DNA from: Mediterraneibacter glycyrrhizinilyticus
GTDB taxonomy: Bacteria > Bacillota > Clostridia > Lachnospirales > Lachnospiraceae
Assembly: GCF_015560805.1 (NCBI RefSeq)
Contig: NZ_JADMSO010000001.1
Coordinates: 62,001 to 126,000 of the forward strand
DNA: 64,000 bases
Direction: 5' to 3'
Shown in pieces: positions 22,371 through 30,207 of the stretch. A program made the translations under genes and the position numbers. The notes under the pieces are model-generated. The model worked only from the letters and a program-made list of their open reading frames with translations, had not been told where the DNA came from and searched no databases. Positions within the stretch are counted from its first letter, which is position 1, and the number at the start of each line of letters is the position of its first letter.

Positions 22371-23324
22371 TCAAAGAGTCATATGGCTTTTATAATATTC
22401 TTTCGGCGTCATGCCGTATTCTTTTTTAAAGGCGCGGAAGAAATGATTGTATCCTCCGAATCCAGCCATTTTGTAAACTTCGGTGATCGGCATGCCCTCG
22501 ATGATGTATTTCTTGCACATACGGAGCCGGTTTTTGGTGATGTAGCTGTGCAGCGTCTGTCCGGTCTGTTTCTTGAATTCCCGGCAAATATGGTAGCGGC
22601 TCACAAAAAAAACTTTTTCCAGACGTTCCAGAGTGAGTTCCTCGGAAATGTGCCGGTGGATATAGGCGAACAGATCGTCCAGTACAAACTGCCGGTGACC
22701 TTTCCTTGTCTTTTCAAATTCAGAACGGATGCAGGCTCTCAAAATGATGACGATCATAAGAGAGAGCATATTTTTTTCAAAAAGCCGCGCACCAAAATCG
22801 TCTTTTTCCTGTTCGGAACGTTCCAGACGGGTGAACAGATTTTTCAGGATCGCGGCAGTACCTCCGTCGGTCGGAACGCTGATGCAGGAGAAAGGAACGA
22901 CTTCCATACTTTTCAGGAGATCCGTCCCCTCCTCGGAAAGTTCCGCCAACAGTTCTTCCGAATATTGGATCCAGAGAAGTTCCGCGGCATGCTGAGAATT
23001 CCGGGATTGGATCTGGATCGTCTCTTTCGGCTTGATCAGGATCAGATCGTTGGGACCGCAGTGCCAGACGACGGGCTGCCCCATTGGATTTTCGGGCTGT
23101 ACGGCGTCATCGTCCGGAGGAACGGCAGAACCGACGACAGTATCAGCGTGGATAGAGGAAGTTTTATGTTTTTTTGCCGGCGTTTCATTGCAGAATGAGC
23201 AGTTGCCGACGCGTACGATCAGCACACTGTAATAATTTCCGGATGAAATCCGCTTCTTCTTTGTATTTTCCAGAATAATGCGGGAAAGCTGGTATCGTTT
23301 CTTTTCTGATGTTTTGTGTTCCAT
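22371..23324 (-). CDS. AraC-family transcription regulator
   Basis: 317-residue regulator. The N-terminal 200 residues look like a cupin-type sensing domain (WHCGPNDLILIKPKETIQIQ), the last 100 are the double helix-turn-helix of AraC (LERLEKVFFVSRYHICREFKKQTGQTLHSYI then ITEVYKMAGFGGYNHFFRAFKKEYGMTPKEYY). It reads away from the GPH transporter with a 242-base gap, so it most likely activates the transporter-hydrolase-reductase operon in response to its substrate. Contains three cysteines near residues 42-46 and 87 that could be chance. Confidence 0.92.
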   Translation of the reverse strand: MEHKTSEKKRYQLSRIILENTKKKRISSGNYYSVLIVRVGNCSFCNETPAKKHKTSSIHADTVVGSAVPPDDDAVQPENPMGQPVVWHCGPNDLILIKPKETIQIQSRNSQHAAELLWIQYSEELLAELSEEGTDLLKSMEVVPFSCISVPTDGGTAAILKNLFTRLERSEQEKDDFGARLFEKNMLSLMIVIILRACIRSEFEKTRKGHRQFVLDDLFAYIHRHISEELTLERLEKVFFVSRYHICREFKKQTGQTLHSYITKNRLRMCKKYIIEGMPITEVYKMAGFGGYNHFFRAFKKEYGMTPKEYYKSHMTL

Positions 23325-23566
23325 GAACCCTCCTTTTTGGCAAAAACAGCATGATTATTAAAAGTAGACAAAAATTTAACAAGCAAATTGTGCATGTTGC
23401 TGAATTGAATTTTCAGAAAGCGGCATCAATATAGATAAATATAATAATAAGTCAATTTACAATAGTTTTCAAGCAAGAAATGTATATGTTTTAAGAGACG
23501 CTTCTTCTATAATCGAGCATAAACATACAGTAGATAAAACTGTTCAGATGTAAGGAGGAAATTTCA
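23325..23566. promoter_or_regulatory. divergent control region AraC / GPH operon
   Basis: 242 AT-rich bases between divergent starts. A TATAAT at 23508-23513 suits the rightward operon; no good -35 is found 17 bases before it, as expected for an activator-dependent promoter. AAGGAGGAAATTTC (23552-23565) is a strong ribosome site for the transporter. Confidence 0.5.
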
Positions 23567-24958
23567 GTGAAAGAAACAAGTACAAATGTAAGACCCTTTT
23601 CGATGAAAGACAAGATCGGAATCACACTGGGCGACCTGGGATGCTGCTGTACCGAGCAGTTCCGCGCGATGTTTTTGACCGTGTTCTACACACTGGTCCT
23701 GCAGGTAAATCCGTTCCATGTCGGAATTCTCATGCTTGTCACCAAAATATGGGATGCGGTGAACGACCCGATCATCGGTGCGCTTGTCGATATGCGGCGT
23801 GCGAAAAAAGGCGGAAAATTCATTCCATGGATCCGCGCATTTTCGTTCCCGATGGCAGTCCTCTGTATACTCGGATTTGTAAATGTGAGCAATCTCGATT
23901 ACGGATTCCGTATCGGATATATGTTTGTGACTTATGTGCTTTATGAAGCGATGTATACATGTGTCAACGTACCGTTCGGAAGCTTATCCAGTGTTATGAC
24001 AGACGATACACGTCAGAGAACCGCTCTGTCCCGTTACAGAAGCCTTGGCGGAACGATCTTCATGACAGTGATCGTAATGGTAGGACCGCTTGTATTGTAT
24101 GACAACAACAACCAGCCGCTGCCGGGAAGATTTTTGATGATGGCGTCCGTTTGTGCCCTGGTAGGTCTGCTTTGCCTGCAGATCACCTGTGTATGGTGTA
24201 AAGAACGTGTGGTACTTCCGGTTCCGGAGAAAAAAGAAAAACTGCACTATCTTGATATCATCAAACATGTTGCAAAAAACCGTGCGTTCATGGGTGTTGT
24301 TCTGTTCAGCTTTATCGGAATGGTAGGAGCATCCATCGTAAACGGTCTGAATACCTACTTGTTCCGCGACTGGTTCGGCGATGTCAAAGTGATGGCAGCC
24401 TCCGGAGCGCTGAATACAGTATATGCGCTGATCGTATTTGCATTCACACAGCCGGTAGCCAACAAACTTGGTAAAAAAGAATGGTGTGTAGCCGGTGCAG
24501 GCGGCGCGGCGATCGTATTCGCATTTTTGTTCTTCTTCCCGATCCACAATCCGGTACTGTTCATCGTGATCAACGGACTGTGTTATCTCGGAGCAAGCGG
24601 AATGCAGGTGCTTGTATGGGCGCTTGTTAATGATGCGATCGACTATCAGGAACTGCAGACAGGAGAGCGAAACGAAGGAATCATGTATTCTGCATATTCA
24701 TTCTTCCGTAAACTTGCAAATGCAGTATCCGGAAGCTTCTCCAGTTTTGCACTCGGGATCATCGGATATCAGGTATCGGAAGCGGTACAGACAACAGAAG
24801 TTGTAAACCGGATCTGGAAAACATACACAGGAAGCTATGTGATCGGATATGGTCTGGCAGCGTTGGTATTGTTCCTGCTTTACCCGCTTGGAAAGAAGAA
24901 AACACAGGAAATGCTGGAACAGCTGAAAGCAAAACGTGCGGCGAATGCGGCAAAATAA
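23567..24958 (+). CDS. GPH-family (glycoside-pentoside-hexuronide) cation symporter
   Basis: 463-residue transporter with twelve predicted helices. Typical of the GPH branch of the major facilitator group: KIWDAVNDPIIGALVDMRRAKKGGKFIPWI after the second helix, FGSLSSVMTDDTRQRTALSRYRSLGG, and DAIDYQELQTGERNEGIMYSAYSFFRKLANAVSGS late. The start GTG/ATG around 23567 has AAGGAGGAAA before it. GPH proteins import sugars and glucuronides, but relatives also carry bile-acid and aromatic compounds in gut bacteria. First gene of an operon with a hydrolase and a flavoprotein reductase. Confidence 0.9.
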   Translation: MKETSTNVRPFSMKDKIGITLGDLGCCCTEQFRAMFLTVFYTLVLQVNPFHVGILMLVTKIWDAVNDPIIGALVDMRRAKKGGKFIPWIRAFSFPMAVLCILGFVNVSNLDYGFRIGYMFVTYVLYEAMYTCVNVPFGSLSSVMTDDTRQRTALSRYRSLGGTIFMTVIVMVGPLVLYDNNNQPLPGRFLMMASVCALVGLLCLQITCVWCKERVVLPVPEKKEKLHYLDIIKHVAKNRAFMGVVLFSFIGMVGASIVNGLNTYLFRDWFGDVKVMAASGALNTVYALIVFAFTQPVANKLGKKEWCVAGAGGAAIVFAFLFFFPIHNPVLFIVINGLCYLGASGMQVLVWALVNDAIDYQELQTGERNEGIMYSAYSFFRKLANAVSGSFSSFALGIIGYQVSEAVQTTEVVNRIWKTYTGSYVIGYGLAALVLFLLYPLGKKKTQEMLEQLKAKRAANAAK

Positions 24959-24984
24959 TGACACAGATAAGAGGAATTACTTAA

Positions 24985-25746
24985 ATGAAAACATTACCAA
25001 TTGAATTTGTAAACCGAAATGGACTGACCCTGCGCGGGATCGCGACGATGCCGGATGGAGAGGGACATTTTCCAACGGTGATCAATCTTCACGGATTCGG
25101 CGGGATGAAAGCCGGCTACAAAGGACTCCATATAACAATGGCAAGAGCATTGGCAGAAGAAGGGATCGGCTGCATCCGTTTTGATTTTTCCTATAACGGC
25201 GAGAGCGACGGAGAATTTGAAGACATGACGTTCACGTCTCTTCTCAACGATACTGAGGATATGTGGAACTGGGCAAAGACACAGGATTTTGTGGATCCGG
25301 AAAAGATGATCCTTTCCGGTCACAGCATGGGCGGTTTTGTAGCCGCAAGCGCTGCGCCGGGAATAGATCCGGCAGCGCTGATACTGATGTGCCCGGGCAA
25401 ACAGATGTGGGACGGCTGCGGAGAACGCTCCCGCGCAATGGAAGCAAAAGGAATCGCATTCGGCGATATCGAGGGACTGAAATTTTCACATGCATTTAAT
25501 TACGATCTGGAAAAATATAATCCGTTCGAAGATGCGGCCGGATATGCGGGACCGACGCTGATTGTAAGAGGGACAAGAGACGAACTGGTGGATGAGGCGA
25601 CTTGCGAGACATACCTCTCCCTTTATGAAAACAGCAAGAGCCGTCTTGTCCATGTGGAAAATGCAAATCATAATTTTGTCGGAATCCCATGCAGAACGGC
25701 ATTGACAAACGAAGTATGTAAATTTGCAAAAGAAGTTACGAAATAG
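24985..25746 (+). CDS. alpha/beta hydrolase, esterase-like
   Basis: 253-residue serine hydrolase. Nucleophile S114 in GHSMGG, oxyanion-side INLHGFGGMKAGYK, acid in RGTRDELVDE and histidine in ENANHNFVG form the expected triad. The overall plan resembles bacterial feruloyl/cinnamoyl esterases and acyl-ester hydrolases. Position between an importer and an ene-reductase suggests that it opens an ester of the imported compound, but substrate is not shown by sequence. Follows the transporter by 26 bases. Confidence 0.88.
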   Translation: MKTLPIEFVNRNGLTLRGIATMPDGEGHFPTVINLHGFGGMKAGYKGLHITMARALAEEGIGCIRFDFSYNGESDGEFEDMTFTSLLNDTEDMWNWAKTQDFVDPEKMILSGHSMGGFVAASAAPGIDPAALILMCPGKQMWDGCGERSRAMEAKGIAFGDIEGLKFSHAFNYDLEKYNPFEDAAGYAGPTLIVRGTRDELVDEATCETYLSLYENSKSRLVHVENANHNFVGIPCRTALTNEVCKFAKEVTK

Positions 25747-25806
25747 CAGCGATTACGCGATAGTAATGACTACAAAACAGCAATGATTTCAGAAAGAAGG
25801 ATTTTT

Positions 25807-27732
25807 ATGAGATTAACAGAAGCAATCACGATCCGAAATACGACATTTAAAAACCGTGTGATGTTCCCGCCGCTGACAACCGGCTACGAGGACAGAAACG
25901 GAACGATCACCGAGCAGGATATCGCATTCTATACAAGACTGGCAGAGGGCGGCGCCGGTTATATTGTGATCGGAGACGTGGCGCCGATCCAGAACTTCAC
26001 CCCGACCCCGCGTTTGTTTGACGATGCGCAGATCGAGTCTTTCCGCAAGCTGGCGGACAGTGTGCACGTATATGGCGCAAAACTCGGAATCCAGATCTTC
26101 CATCCGGAATATGACTGCGAGACGATGATGCGTCTGTTCGCAGAGGGAAAGATGGACGAAGTCCGGACAAAGCTGCACCACGATATGATGCACTTTGTGG
26201 ATGAAGTCAGCGAGGAAATGCTGCTTTCGATCATCGATAAAATGTGCGCATGTGCGGTGCGGGCAGAAAAAGCCGGCGTAGATGTGATCCAGATCCACGG
26301 CGACCGTCTCGTCGGAGCGCTGTGCAGTACGAAAATGAACCACCGTACCGATAAATTCGGCGGAAGCCTTGAGAACCGGACACGGTTTGCGCTTCTGCTC
26401 GTGGAAGCGCTCAGAAAAGCCGTGCCGGATATGATCATCGATTATAAATTCTCCGTTGTGACTCCTGAGAGAGGAAAAGGCGGGATCGATGAGGCGGACG
26501 CACCGGAATTTGCGAAAATGCTGGAGGCGGCAGGCGTAGATATGCTTCATGTGGCACAGGCAAACCATACCGGAAACATGGCGGATACGATCCCGCCGAT
26601 GGGCGTACAGCCGTATGGATTCTTTGCGGATATTTCCGGAAAAGTAAAAGAAGCGGTTTCGATTCCGGTCAGCACAGTCGGACGGATCATTTCTCCGGCA
26701 ATGGCAGAGCAGATCCTTGCATCAGGAAAAGCGGATATGGTCGGAATCGGACGTGGGCTTCTGGCAGATCCGGACTGGACGAACAAAGCGGCGGCAGGAA
26801 AAAGCTGTGACATCCGCGAATGTATTTCCTGTAACAAGGGATGTACCGATAAAATCCAGCACCGTGAATTTTTGTCCTGTATCCTGAATGCGGAAAACGG
26901 ATATGAGGGAACAAGAAAGATCACTCCTGCAGAGTCACCGAAGCATATCGTGATCGTAGGAGGTGGCGTTGCCGGAATGGAAGCGGCGCGTGTCGCTGTG
27001 AAAAAGGGTCATAAAGTTACCTTGTTTGAGCAGAAGACAAGCCTTGGCGGTCAGCTGGAGATCGCAAGCGTACCGCCGCGCAAAGAAGAGATGCGCCGGT
27101 TTACAAACTACCTGTCCCATTGTATGAAACAGGAGGGGATCACCCTGCGTCTCGGCGAAGCTGCGACGCCGGAAAAAATCCTGGATCTGAAACCGGATCA
27201 TGTGATCGTGGCGGCAGGTGCAAATAGCGCCCGTTTCCCGATCAACGGAATGGATCGTGCCTGCGTATGCGATGCATGGGATGTGCTGAGCGGCAAGACG
27301 GAAGTATACGGAAGAACCGCGGTGATCGGCGGCGGAATGGTAGGATGCGAGACCGCAGAATATTTGGCGGAACGCGGATGCAGCGTATCGGTGATCGAGA
27401 TGCTCGATAAGATCGCGGCAGGCGAAAGCGAGACGATCCTCCCGACTTTGAAAGAGAATTATGAACGGTTCGGCGTGAAAGAATATCCATCTCATAAAGT
27501 AGAAAAAATTCAGGAAAGCTCTGTGATCTGCAAGAACAAAGAGGATGAAAAAGTTGTCATCGACTGCGATTTCGTTGTTCTTGCGATGGGTGCGAGACCG
27601 GTTGCATTTGACACCGCATTTTTGGATGAAGCGGGAATCCCGTTTGCGAAAATCGGAGACTGCGGCGAGCGTGCGTCAGACATTTCCAACGCGGTAAGAA
27701 CCGCATATGATACGGTAAATGCGATCCGGTAA
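25807..27732 (+). CDS. bilR: Old-Yellow-Enzyme/dienoyl-CoA-reductase-type flavoprotein with HGDR motif, probable bilirubin reductase
   Basis: 641-residue three-part enzyme: FMN barrel (1-330), [4Fe-4S] site C339/C342/C346/C358 and an FAD/NAD(P)-binding part (IVGGGVAGMEAARVAV near 380, AVIGGGMVGCETAEYL later). It shares the layout of 2,4-dienoyl-CoA reductase and bile-acid BaiCD/BaiH enzymes. In place of the usual HGAHGY catalytic motif it has HGDR, with D166 and R167. From memory, those two residues mark the gut bilirubin reductase BilR, which makes urobilinogen. ATG 25807 follows AGAAAGGATTT. Last gene of the operon. The family call is certain; the substrate call rests on the motif and could instead be another unsaturated compound. 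Confidence 0.75.
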   Translation: MRLTEAITIRNTTFKNRVMFPPLTTGYEDRNGTITEQDIAFYTRLAEGGAGYIVIGDVAPIQNFTPTPRLFDDAQIESFRKLADSVHVYGAKLGIQIFHPEYDCETMMRLFAEGKMDEVRTKLHHDMMHFVDEVSEEMLLSIIDKMCACAVRAEKAGVDVIQIHGDRLVGALCSTKMNHRTDKFGGSLENRTRFALLLVEALRKAVPDMIIDYKFSVVTPERGKGGIDEADAPEFAKMLEAAGVDMLHVAQANHTGNMADTIPPMGVQPYGFFADISGKVKEAVSIPVSTVGRIISPAMAEQILASGKADMVGIGRGLLADPDWTNKAAAGKSCDIRECISCNKGCTDKIQHREFLSCILNAENGYEGTRKITPAESPKHIVIVGGGVAGMEAARVAVKKGHKVTLFEQKTSLGGQLEIASVPPRKEEMRRFTNYLSHCMKQEGITLRLGEAATPEKILDLKPDHVIVAAGANSARFPINGMDRACVCDAWDVLSGKTEVYGRTAVIGGGMVGCETAEYLAERGCSVSVIEMLDKIAAGESETILPTLKENYERFGVKEYPSHKVEKIQESSVICKNKEDEKVVIDCDFVVLAMGARPVAFDTAFLDEAGIPFAKIGDCGERASDISNAVRTAYDTVNAIR

Positions 27733-28347: not shown

Positions 28348-30207
28348 ATGAACGTATTGCTGGCGGCGATCAACGCGAAATATATCCATTCCAATCTGGC
28401 TGTGTACAGCTTAAAGGCGTATGCGGAGGAAAAATGGGATTCCGAGGCAGGACAAAAGGAAATACAGGAAGATACAAAGCCGATCATTGCGATCGCGGAA
28501 TATACGATCAATCAGACCGTAGATCAGATTCTGATGGATCTGTACCGCAGAAAGCCGGATATGCTCTGCTTTTCCTGTTATCTCTGGAATATCGAATATG
28601 TAGAACATTTACTGCGGGAGATCCCGAAGATCCTGCCGAAGACGGAAATCTGGCTCGGCGGACCGGAAGTTTCGTGGAATGCCAAAGAGGTGCTTCTGCG
28701 ATTCCCACAGGTGCGCGGCGTGATGCGCGGTGAGGGTGAGGAGACATTTTATCAGCTTTTGCGGGCGCGGAATGAAGATCTGTATAAGATCGACGGGATC
28801 ACGTTCCGGAACAAAGAGGTCTGGAACAATGAAGCACGGAACAATGACACCCGGAACGATGATGACAGGGAGCAGGAGACGATTCTGGCGACGGATGAGA
28901 GAAAACCGATGGATTTAAGCAAAATTCCGTTCGTCTACAAGGATATGGATCCGTTTGAGCATAAGATCATCTATTATGAATCCAGCCGGGGATGCCCGTT
29001 TTCCTGCAGTTACTGTCTCTCTTCGATCGACAAATGTCTGCGGTTCCGTGATTCGGAGCTTGTGAAGCGGGAATTGCAGTTTTTTATTGACAGAAAAGTA
29101 CCGCAGGTGAAGTTTGTGGACCGGACGTTCAACTGCCGCCACGATCATGCGATGACGATCTGGAAATATCTCGCGGAACATGACAACGGAACGACGAATT
29201 TTCATTTTGAGGTGGCGGCGGATCTTCTCAATGAAGAAGAGATCCGTCTGATCCGCTCTATGCGCCCGGGACTGATCCAGCTCGAGATCGGCGTGCAGTC
29301 GACGAATGAACGGACGATCAAGGAAATCCGGAGAACGATGAAATTTTCCGAAGTTGCACGGATTGTAAGCGAAGTCCGCTCCGGCGGAAATATCCATCAG
29401 CATCTGGATCTGATCGCAGGGCTTCCGTATGAAGATATGGAGAGTTTTCACCGTTCGTTTAACGATGTGTATGCATTGCGTCCGCAGCAGCTCCAGCTTG
29501 GATTCCTGAAAGTGCTGAAAGGCTCTTATATGGAAGAAAAGGCAGTGGAGTATCAGCTCGTATTTCAGGAACGCCCGCCATTTGAAGTCTTGTCTACGAA
29601 ATGGCTTTCATATGAGGATGTGATCCGGCTAAAAGGCATCGAGGAGATGGTGGAAGTCCATTACAACAGTGGGCAGTTTGTGCATACGATGGAACGGCTG
29701 GAACCGATATTCGGCGACGCGTTTTCGATGTATGATGCGCTCCGGGCATATTATGAAGCGCACGGACTGGATCAGGTCAATCACAGCCGGATCGGTCGAT
29801 ATGAGATTTTGTGGGCATTTCTTACGGAATATCTTGAAAAGTATCTTAGAGAATCTAAGAAATCTTCTTTGGAATCGTTTGGGGAATCGCTCGTGGGATC
29901 GGCAGACGGTTGGCAGGAGGAATTTCGGGAGGCGCTCACTTATGATCTGTATCTGCGGGAAAATGTAAAGAACCGTCCGGCATTTGCAGGGGAAGAGACC
30001 GTGGAAAAACGGATCGCCGCGGCATTTTATGAACGGGAAGAGAGCGAACATCAATATCTGAAGAGCGGATACGAGGGAAGAGACAGGCGGCAGATGCGGA
30101 AGATGACACATTTGGAGAGAATCGGCGGAAAGCTGCTGCTGTTTGATTATCAGAACAGGGACGCGCTCTGTAATCAGGCGAGAGTGACCGCAGTGGAGGG
30201 ATTATGA
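28348..30207 (+). CDS. B12-binding-domain radical SAM protein (DUF4080 type)
   Basis: 619 residues. The first 140 resemble a cobalamin-binding Rossmann domain (MLCFSCYLWNIEYVEHLL, IWLGGPEVSW, GVMRGEGEETF); then the radical SAM domain with C216, C220 and C223 in GCPFSCSYCLSS; then a C-terminal all-helical DUF4080 part. An Asn/Asp-rich insert (NNEARNNDTRNDDDREQE, about residues 163-180) separates the first two domains. Substrate unknown; relatives modify RNA, lipids or small molecules. GGGAGGCGG precedes ATG 28348. It overlaps nth by 4 bases. Confidence 0.88.
   Translation: MNVLLAAINAKYIHSNLAVYSLKAYAEEKWDSEAGQKEIQEDTKPIIAIAEYTINQTVDQILMDLYRRKPDMLCFSCYLWNIEYVEHLLREIPKILPKTEIWLGGPEVSWNAKEVLLRFPQVRGVMRGEGEETFYQLLRARNEDLYKIDGITFRNKEVWNNEARNNDTRNDDDREQETILATDERKPMDLSKIPFVYKDMDPFEHKIIYYESSRGCPFSCSYCLSSIDKCLRFRDSELVKRELQFFIDRKVPQVKFVDRTFNCRHDHAMTIWKYLAEHDNGTTNFHFEVAADLLNEEEIRLIRSMRPGLIQLEIGVQSTNERTIKEIRRTMKFSEVARIVSEVRSGGNIHQHLDLIAGLPYEDMESFHRSFNDVYALRPQQLQLGFLKVLKGSYMEEKAVEYQLVFQERPPFEVLSTKWLSYEDVIRLKGIEEMVEVHYNSGQFVHTMERLEPIFGDAFSMYDALRAYYEAHGLDQVNHSRIGRYEILWAFLTEYLEKYLRESKKSSLESFGESLVGSADGWQEEFREALTYDLYLRENVKNRPAFAGEETVEKRIAAAFYEREESEHQYLKSGYEGRDRRQMRKMTHLERIGGKLLLFDYQNRDALCNQARVTAVEGL

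What the first reader, a model, noticed from the sequence alone, without database searches (positions are those of the whole stretch)
22371..27732. AraC-controlled importer + hydrolase + BilR-like reductase: possible bile-pigment (or related tetrapyrrole/steroid/aromatic) uptake and reduction locus
A divergent AraC regulator, GPH transporter, esterase-like hydrolase and HGDR-motif flavoprotein form a self-contained catabolic unit. If the reductase acts on bilirubin, the neighbours would be candidates for its uptake, for opening an ester conjugate, and for induction, roles that I do not know to be described for bilirubin reduction.
Basis: partly seen in the sequence, partly recalled or inferred. 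Interest (0 to 1): 0.8.

Follow-up and report, generated by a model that had tools for sequence, protein, structure and literature searches.

The report
Bile-pigment reductase operon with importer
A gut-type bacterium carries a compact gene set with its own regulator that pairs a recognised bilirubin-reductase type with an importer and an ester-cleaving enzyme, which suggests, but does not show, that some bacteria take up and open esterified bile pigments before reducing them.

Summary
In detail: AraC regulator, GPH symporter, feruloyl-esterase-like hydrolase and HGDR flavoprotein at 22371-27732; the reductase starts at 25807, not 25783. The reductase is a BilR by NCBIfam (1041 bits, cut-off 750), and all 6 operon enzymes keep 11 of 15 positions that separate insertion and short BilRs from other OYEs. 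It is the long form without the insertion, probably the published 'BilR-basal' type; I saw no assay of that type in the parts of two papers that I read. New here: the four genes recur in the same order in 6 loci of 5 genera. All 6 share a 37-bp operator-like element with TATAAT at one fixed distance, the only such site in the window's genome. The MarR/flavodoxin and BilV neighbours of other BilRs are absent. Best model: an AraC-induced module that imports an ester-conjugated bile pigment, opens the ester inside the cell and reduces the methine bridges. The reductase family is well supported; substrate, import, ester opening and inducer are inferred. Main rival: a hydroxycinnamate-ester pathway. 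New variant of a known kind.

The parts
22371..23324 (-). AraC-family regulator, divergent from the operon (317 aa)
   Evidence: PF12833 67.7 bits, PF02311 28.1 bits; homologue in the same place in 6 of 6 loci, 37-83% identical to this one
23452..23488 (+). 37-bp operator-like element in the AraC-GPH intergenic region
   Evidence: conserved in 6 of 6 loci; 138 of 184 matches and 26 of 46 invariant columns over 5 rows (L066 left out) against at most 103 and 10 in 60 Markov resamplings; single match in the genome with up to 3 mismatches
23508..23513 (+). TATAAT, presumed -10 box, 56 bases after the first base of the element
   Evidence: same distance in 6 of 6 loci
23567..24958 (+). GPH-family cation symporter (463 aa, GTG start, SD AAGGAGG)
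   Evidence: TIGR00792 278.8 bits, cut-off 231.35; start context; 66-93% identical in the 5 other loci
24985..25746 (+). alpha/beta hydrolase, feruloyl-esterase-like (253 aa); S114, D199, H229 presumed triad
   Evidence: phmmer 7z2u ferulic acid esterase E 4.1e-41; S114 aligns with the residue changed to Ala in 7z2v; triad residues invariant in 6 of 6
25807..27732 (+). BilR-type reductase, long form without the insertion (641 aa)
   Evidence: NF045599 1041.2 bits, cut-off 750; alignment; AF2 model pLDDT 86.5, best PDB match 1ps9, TM 0.86
26296..26307 (+). HGDR motif codons (residues 164-167)
   Evidence: invariant in 20 of 20 BilR-type proteins aligned; D166 and R167 in none of 8 other OYEs
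26821..26880 (+). presumed 4Fe-4S cysteines C339, C342, C346, C358
   Evidence: invariant in 15 of 15 long BilRs; role as cluster ligands is recalled from the 2,4-dienoyl-CoA reductase family

Best explanation
An AraC-activated module for ester-conjugated bile pigments. A conjugate (bilirubin acyl glycosides such as the glucuronide are the obvious candidates) or a product of it signals through the AraC protein, which activates the operon from the element just upstream of the -10 box. The GPH symporter imports the sugar-bearing conjugate, the cytoplasmic serine esterase opens the ester, and BilR reduces the methine bridges with electrons passed through its C-terminal domain and Fe-S cluster. 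No BilV-like protein was found in the genome, so the predicted product is divinyl-urobilinogen, not full urobilinogen. Shown by sequence: family of each gene, the conserved unit, the shared element, BilR-type residues. Inferred: substrate, import, ester opening, inducer, product. The confidence is for the whole model; for the narrower claim that this BilR reduces a bilirubin- or biliverdin-type pigment I would say about 0.75.
For: BilR models far over cut-off; 11 of 15 BilR-diagnostic positions unchanged in all 6 operon enzymes, 13 of 15 in the window's. Four-gene order in 6 loci of 5 genera. Close GPH relatives in 3 of 299 family genomes, and these 3 have the unit. Conserved element and fixed -10 spacing, single site in the genome. 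A related long BilR without insertion (L079) sits beside a MarR gene 49% identical to the one beside a short BilR, which ties this type to the bilQ context of tested enzymes. GPH is a sugar-conjugate symporter family; its second-best NCBIfam model is the glucuronide transporter, 202.6 bits, below its cut-off of 528. PMC12934979 (passages) states that esterases as well as glucuronidases may hydrolyse acyl glucuronides. No BilV-like match over 36% identity in the genome.
Against: No activity or expression data. The hydrolase resembles feruloyl esterases and a lipase, not a known acyl-glucuronide esterase. In the same paper faecal hydrolysis of a prostaglandin acyl glucuronide was blocked by a glucuronidase inhibitor and not by an esterase inhibitor. 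4 of 10 non-insertion long BilR loci lack the other three genes, two of them in Lysobacter and Psychrobacter. G301 has both this operon and an insertion BilR-BilV pair, which could mean a different substrate. The genome has GH2 genes, some with a glucuronidase-like N-x-K-G motif, so deconjugation could occur without the esterase.
Confidence: 0.4

Rival explanations
1. Dietary hydroxycinnamate-ester pathway: the GPH symporter imports a feruloylated or caffeoylated sugar or quinate ester, the feruloyl-esterase-like hydrolase frees the acid, and the flavoenzyme reduces its side-chain double bond.
For: Hydrolase nearest to feruloyl and cinnamoyl esterases by sequence and fold; the GPH family fits a sugar ester; OYE-type enzymes reduce conjugated double bonds (general knowledge).
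Against: The reductase has the BilR-diagnostic residues, including D166 and R167, in all 6 operons and scores far over the BilR cut-off; the hydrolase's top fold match is a lipase, so the relation to feruloyl esterases does not fix the substrate.
Confidence: 0.2
2. Another linear-tetrapyrrole ester (for example a chlorophyll or phycobilin breakdown product, or another host pigment conjugate) is the substrate; the module works as proposed but not on bilirubin conjugates.
For: Close BilR relatives without the operon occur in Lysobacter and Psychrobacter (65-66% identity); Hall et al. suggest a role on bilirubin or similar metabolites in environmental species (PMC10769871 section 8); G301 holds two BilR types.
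Against: The operon was seen only in Clostridia-type genomes here; barrel-domain identity to insertion-type BilR averages 55%.
Confidence: 0.2
3. BilR reduces free bilirubin or biliverdin that enters by diffusion; importer and esterase serve a separate nutrient that happens to be co-regulated.
For: BilR expressed in E. coli with or without BilS works on added bilirubin (PMC10769871, passages), so an importer is not needed; 4 of 10 related loci lack importer and esterase.
Against: The three genes stay together behind one conserved promoter-like element in 6 loci.
Confidence: 0.13
4. The four genes are unrelated neighbours.
For: GPH, AraC and alpha/beta hydrolase genes are common in such genomes (general knowledge).
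Against: Same order in 6 loci of 5 genera, matching flank ORFs never shared by more than two loci, gaps of 26 and 60 bases, conserved element.
Confidence: 0.03

Closest known systems
BilR, long form (R. gnavus BilR, PMC10769871; subtypes short, insertion, basal, PMC13252198)
   Same: NF045599 over cut-off, PF00724 + PF07992, HGDR at 164-167, BilR-diagnostic residues
   Different: no insertion of about 28 residues; operon with GPH, esterase and AraC; activity of this protein untested
bilQ-bilR-bilS operon (PMC10769871 passages)
   Same: BilR with a neighbouring regulator
   Different: no MarR regulator and no flavodoxin gene at the locus; AraC instead
bilR-bilV pair (PMC13252198)
   Same: long BilR
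   Different: no BilV neighbour; best BilV match in the genome 36% identity
Feruloyl/cinnamoyl esterases (7z2u L. buchneri; LJ0536; Est1E)
   Same: fold, and nucleophile aligned with the L. buchneri enzyme
   Different: 34-35% identity to the L. buchneri enzyme in the fold alignment; substrate unknown
GPH symporters (UidB, MelB)
   Same: TIGR00792 over cut-off
   Different: below the cut-off of every substrate-specific model listed

Membership tests
BilR (bilirubin reductase) | curated model score (NF045599, NF045592) | tested here: met
   1041.2 vs 750; 538.8 vs 425
BilR (bilirubin reductase) | HGDR motif and the domains PF00724 + PF07992 (criteria of PMC10769871, passage) | tested here: met
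BilR (bilirubin reductase) | reduces bilirubin | not testable with these tools
   needs an assay
BilR-insertion subtype | extra sequence region | tested here: not met
   gap in the window's protein where 5 of 5 insertion-type proteins have about 28 residues
BilR-basal subtype | long, no insertion, place on the published tree | tested here: inconclusive
   long and no insertion, outside the short and insertion clades; the paper that defines the clades is not held
bilQRS operon | MarR gene (bilQ) and/or flavodoxin gene (bilS) beside bilR | tested here: not met
   neighbours are AraC, GPH, hydrolase and a B12-binding radical SAM gene
bilR-bilV pair | OYE with AHAH motif beside bilR | tested here: not met
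   none at the locus; 7 matches in the genome, best 36% identity; motif expression scan of 8 OYE loci showed no AHAH among the 5 it matched
GPH symporter family | TIGR00792 over cut-off | tested here: met
   278.8 vs 231.35
Feruloyl/cinnamoyl esterase | alpha/beta-hydrolase fold with Ser-Asp-His triad | tested here: met
   Ser by alignment, Asp and His by position, recalled
Feruloyl/cinnamoyl esterase | cleaves hydroxycinnamate esters | not testable with these tools
   needs an assay
UidA-type beta-glucuronidase route | UidA model over its cut-off in the genome | tested here: not met
   16 matches, best 221.1 vs 544; but 4 of 8 fetched GH2 loci carry N-x-K-G in the matched region, so other glucuronidases are possible

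The most novel reading that the evidence does not exclude
Some gut bacteria have a dedicated, inducible route that imports conjugated bile pigments as acyl glycosides, opens them inside the cell with a serine esterase in place of beta-glucuronidase, and reduces them with a BilR that works without BilV or BilS: a conjugated-bilirubin operon with a candidate importer and a candidate regulator site for bile-pigment reduction.
Probability: 0.33. Interest if true: 0.82.

Novelty: new variant of a known kind. Interest (0 to 1): 0.6.

Why it matters
Hall et al. write that it is likely, but not confirmed, that beta-glucuronidases deconjugate bilirubin before BilR acts, and that experiments with bilirubin diglucuronide are needed (PMC10769871 discussion passage). 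This operon turns that point into a gene-by-gene test: one importer, one esterase, one reductase, one regulator with one predicted site. If the model is right, deconjugation and reduction would be tied together in one cell, which bears on how much bilirubin is reabsorbed. It would also test whether the long BilR type without the insertion, found here in gut-type and in environmental genera, really is a bilirubin reductase.

Tried and rejected
Bile-acid reductase: the BaiCD model scores 467 against a cut-off of 825 and BilR-type residues are present, so set aside. Copies in viral contigs: 4 and 7 stretches matched a pattern, none encoded a relative. BilV elsewhere in the genome: best 36%. UidA: not over cut-off, but other GH2 glucuronidases stay possible. 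A conserved flank beyond the four genes: 5 matching pairs of flank ORFs, each linking only two loci; L071 offered a single flank ORF, so it says little. The S. variabile record OY725841.1 is labelled plasmid, but operon neighbours include Sua5, SIS, sulfatase and glycosyltransferase genes, so I do not claim that the operon is plasmid-borne. Promoter scan: 8 sites against 7.2 expected; terminator scan: 8 against 6.1, none on the + strand after the reductase; both uninformative.

Rows dropped: the tree left out two rows cut in a wrong frame (L047_own, L026_out) and trimmed L055_own to 650 residues. The element statistic left out L066 as same-genus. L072's BilR is cut by its contig end and was left out of the C-terminal count. 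The tblastn listings show only matches over 60 bits.

Literature: 9 searches. None of the titles and abstract starts listed described an importer, esterase or AraC regulator with bilR; in PMC10769871 'transporter', 'AraC' and 'symporter' do not occur in the main text, and in PMC13252198 'transporter', 'AraC', 'regulator' and 'hydrolase' do not. Supplements were not searched. The BilR-clade paper (ISME J wrae242) is not held, and most subscription journals are missing.
Full report
What is there. The window is G000:C11:62001-126000 of a 3.0-Mb genome. The four ORFs of the finding exist. Pfam and NCBIfam give an AraC-family regulator, a GPH-family symporter, an alpha/beta hydrolase and an OYE-type flavoprotein with a C-terminal pyridine-nucleotide domain. 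The last scores 1041.2 bits on NF045599, bilirubin reductase long form (cut-off 750), and 538.8 on NF045592 (cut-off 425). It is the only protein of the genome over the NF045599 cut-off; the genome has 9 matches to the general OYE family. The ribosome-binding sequence and the relatives' starts put the reductase start at 25807, giving 641 aa with HGDR at residues 164-167.

Is the reductase a BilR? I aligned it with 9 other long BilR-type proteins without the insertion, 5 with it, 5 short ones, 5 BilV-type proteins and 3 further OYEs. In the barrel domain 55 of 345 positions are invariant in all 20 BilR-type proteins; 11 of these, D166 and R167 among them, occur in none of the 8 non-BilR OYEs. 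Starting only from the insertion and short types, 15 positions are diagnostic: 11 are unchanged in all 6 operon enzymes, 13 in the window's; the other 4 differ in some or all operon enzymes (I/L, L/M, L/F, L to A or V). Mean identity to insertion-type proteins is 55% in the barrel and 44% in the C-terminal part; to short ones 35% in the barrel, no more than to BilV-type proteins (35%). In R. gnavus BilR, changing D166 and R167 to alanine significantly lowered activity (PMC10769871, section 8). The AlphaFold2 model has pLDDT 86.5 and its best solved match is E. [quoted passage not shown] So membership by sequence is met and activity is untested. Being long and without the insertion, it is probably the 'BilR-basal' type named in PMC13252198; the paper that defines the types is not held. 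In the sections and passages I read the long enzymes tested are R. gnavus BilR and the Faecalibacillus intestinalis bilR-bilV operon.

A conserved unit. tblastn of the window's proteins against the relatives' neighbourhoods found divergent AraC, then GPH, hydrolase and BilR in the same order in L066 (same genus; its contig is taken to be Lachnospiraceae bacterium UBA1683, L009), L071, L072, L078 and L081 (record of Subdoligranulum variabile, Oscillospiraceae): with the window 6 loci, 5 genera, 2 families. Identities to the window's copies are 37-83% (AraC), 66-93% (GPH), 48-84% (hydrolase) and 57-90% (BilR). Matching flank ORFs never link more than two loci. Of 10 long BilR loci without the insertion that I looked at, 6 have the unit and 4 do not: Lysobacter L010, Psychrobacter L011, L067 (its contig ends 216 bases upstream of the gene; no close transporter relative in that 87%-complete genome) and L079. 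These loci were found by likeness to the window's protein, so 6 of 10 is not a population estimate. None of 5 insertion-type loci shows the transporter or hydrolase over 60 bits, and 5 of 5 have a BilV-type neighbour with the AHAH motif. None of 5 short loci shows them; 5 of 5 have a MarR-type gene upstream (4 over a Pfam cut-off, L101 below it), and a flavodoxin downstream was seen in 2 of 5. In family samples NF045592 was found in 12 of 290 genomes (5 short, 3 insertion, 4 long without insertion, types), and close GPH relatives in 3 of 299, which are the 3 genomes of that sample with the unit. Wider samples: 4 of 392 in the order, 1 of 398 in the phylum and 1 of 291 in the class, the last two being the window's own genome.

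A shared regulatory site. The AraC-GPH intergenic regions of all 6 loci hold TCAATTT-N5-(A/T)(G/A)TTT(T/G)CAA(G/T)CAA-N4-(T/C)G(G/T)ATATG, with TATAAT exactly 56 bases after its first base in 6 of 6. Over 5 rows (L066 left out) the best 46-column block has 138 of 184 matches and 26 invariant columns; 60 first-order Markov resamplings reached at most 103 and 10. A scan of all loci then held (up to 6 mismatches) found it only at these operons. A search of the window's genome with up to 3 mismatches found this one site and none for the reversed control. The site ends about where a -35 box would lie, as is usual for AraC-type activators (general knowledge). The operon therefore probably has a dedicated activator; binding by the neighbouring AraC protein is inferred.

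Phylogeny. In the tree the window's protein groups with L066, L067, L081, Lysobacter and Psychrobacter (99/99), then with L072 and L078 (86/87), whereas the operon enzyme of L071 pairs with non-operon L079 (100/99), nearer the insertion type (94/93). Operon enzymes thus may come from more than one branch, but the deeper forks are not firm. L079's upstream neighbour is a MarR protein 49% identical to the one beside the short BilR of L102 and 32-41% to the other four; the five of the short loci are 34-46% identical to each other. This links the long type without insertion to the bilQ context of tested enzymes.

How it may work. The hydrolase is nearest to ferulic acid esterases and a thermophilic lipase by sequence and by fold. 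The transporter's second-best NCBIfam model is the glucuronide transporter, below its cut-off; its best PDB relatives are MFSD2A and then MelB. Bilirubin is secreted as the diglucuronide (PMC10769871), an acyl glucuronide and so an ester (general knowledge). PMC12934979 (passages) says that glucuronidases or esterases may open acyl glucuronides, but reports that in mouse faeces glucuronidase and not esterase did so for a prostaglandin conjugate. A GPH importer for the sugar-bearing conjugate, a cytoplasmic esterase and BilR make a coherent pathway, but only the reductase's family rests on strong evidence. With no BilV-like protein over 36% identity in the genome, the expected product is divinyl-urobilinogen (product pattern from PMC13252198, section 4). 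Against the model: the esterase could equally serve hydroxycinnamate esters, G301 carries both this operon and an insertion BilR-BilV pair, and 4 of 10 related loci do without the unit.

Verdict. The proposed roles of importer, hydrolase and regulator remain inferences, now with comparative support. Novelty: a new operon type around a known reductase family; no description was found in the searches named under Tried and rejected.

Noticed in passing
L065:8583-12589 and L066:12817-18103 (both G301): One genome of the window's genus carries an insertion-type BilR with a BilV-type neighbour and, on another contig, this four-gene operon.
   Followed up: partly
L079:187-2594: A long BilR without the insertion lies directly behind a MarR gene related to the bilQ-like genes of short BilR loci.
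   Followed up: yes
L010:8025-9944 (Lysobacter sp. A03), L011:8007-9932 (Psychrobacter sp. GP33): BilR-type proteins 65-66% identical to the window's in Pseudomonadota, over the NF045599 cut-off, without the operon; the tree places them inside a clostridial group, which suggests transfer between phyla.
   Followed up: partly
L081 (OY725841.1:36091-56010): The operon lies in a 93.6-kb circular S. variabile record labelled plasmid, whose genes near the operon look like ordinary chromosome genes; a Flavodoxin_4 gene is next to the AraC gene.
   Followed up: partly
22371-23324: The window's AraC protein (317 aa) is longer than the other five (277-289 aa), with extra residues in the N-terminal ligand domain.
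   Followed up: no
L065:12774-13646 and L012:6678-7367: AraC-type genes 36% and 32% identical to the window's regulator adjoin two of five insertion-type BilR loci, so AraC control of bilR may be wider than this operon.
   Followed up: no
28348-30207: Downstream gene encodes a B12-binding radical SAM protein with a DUF4080 domain; not seen beside the operon in the other loci by name, not tested further.
   Followed up: no
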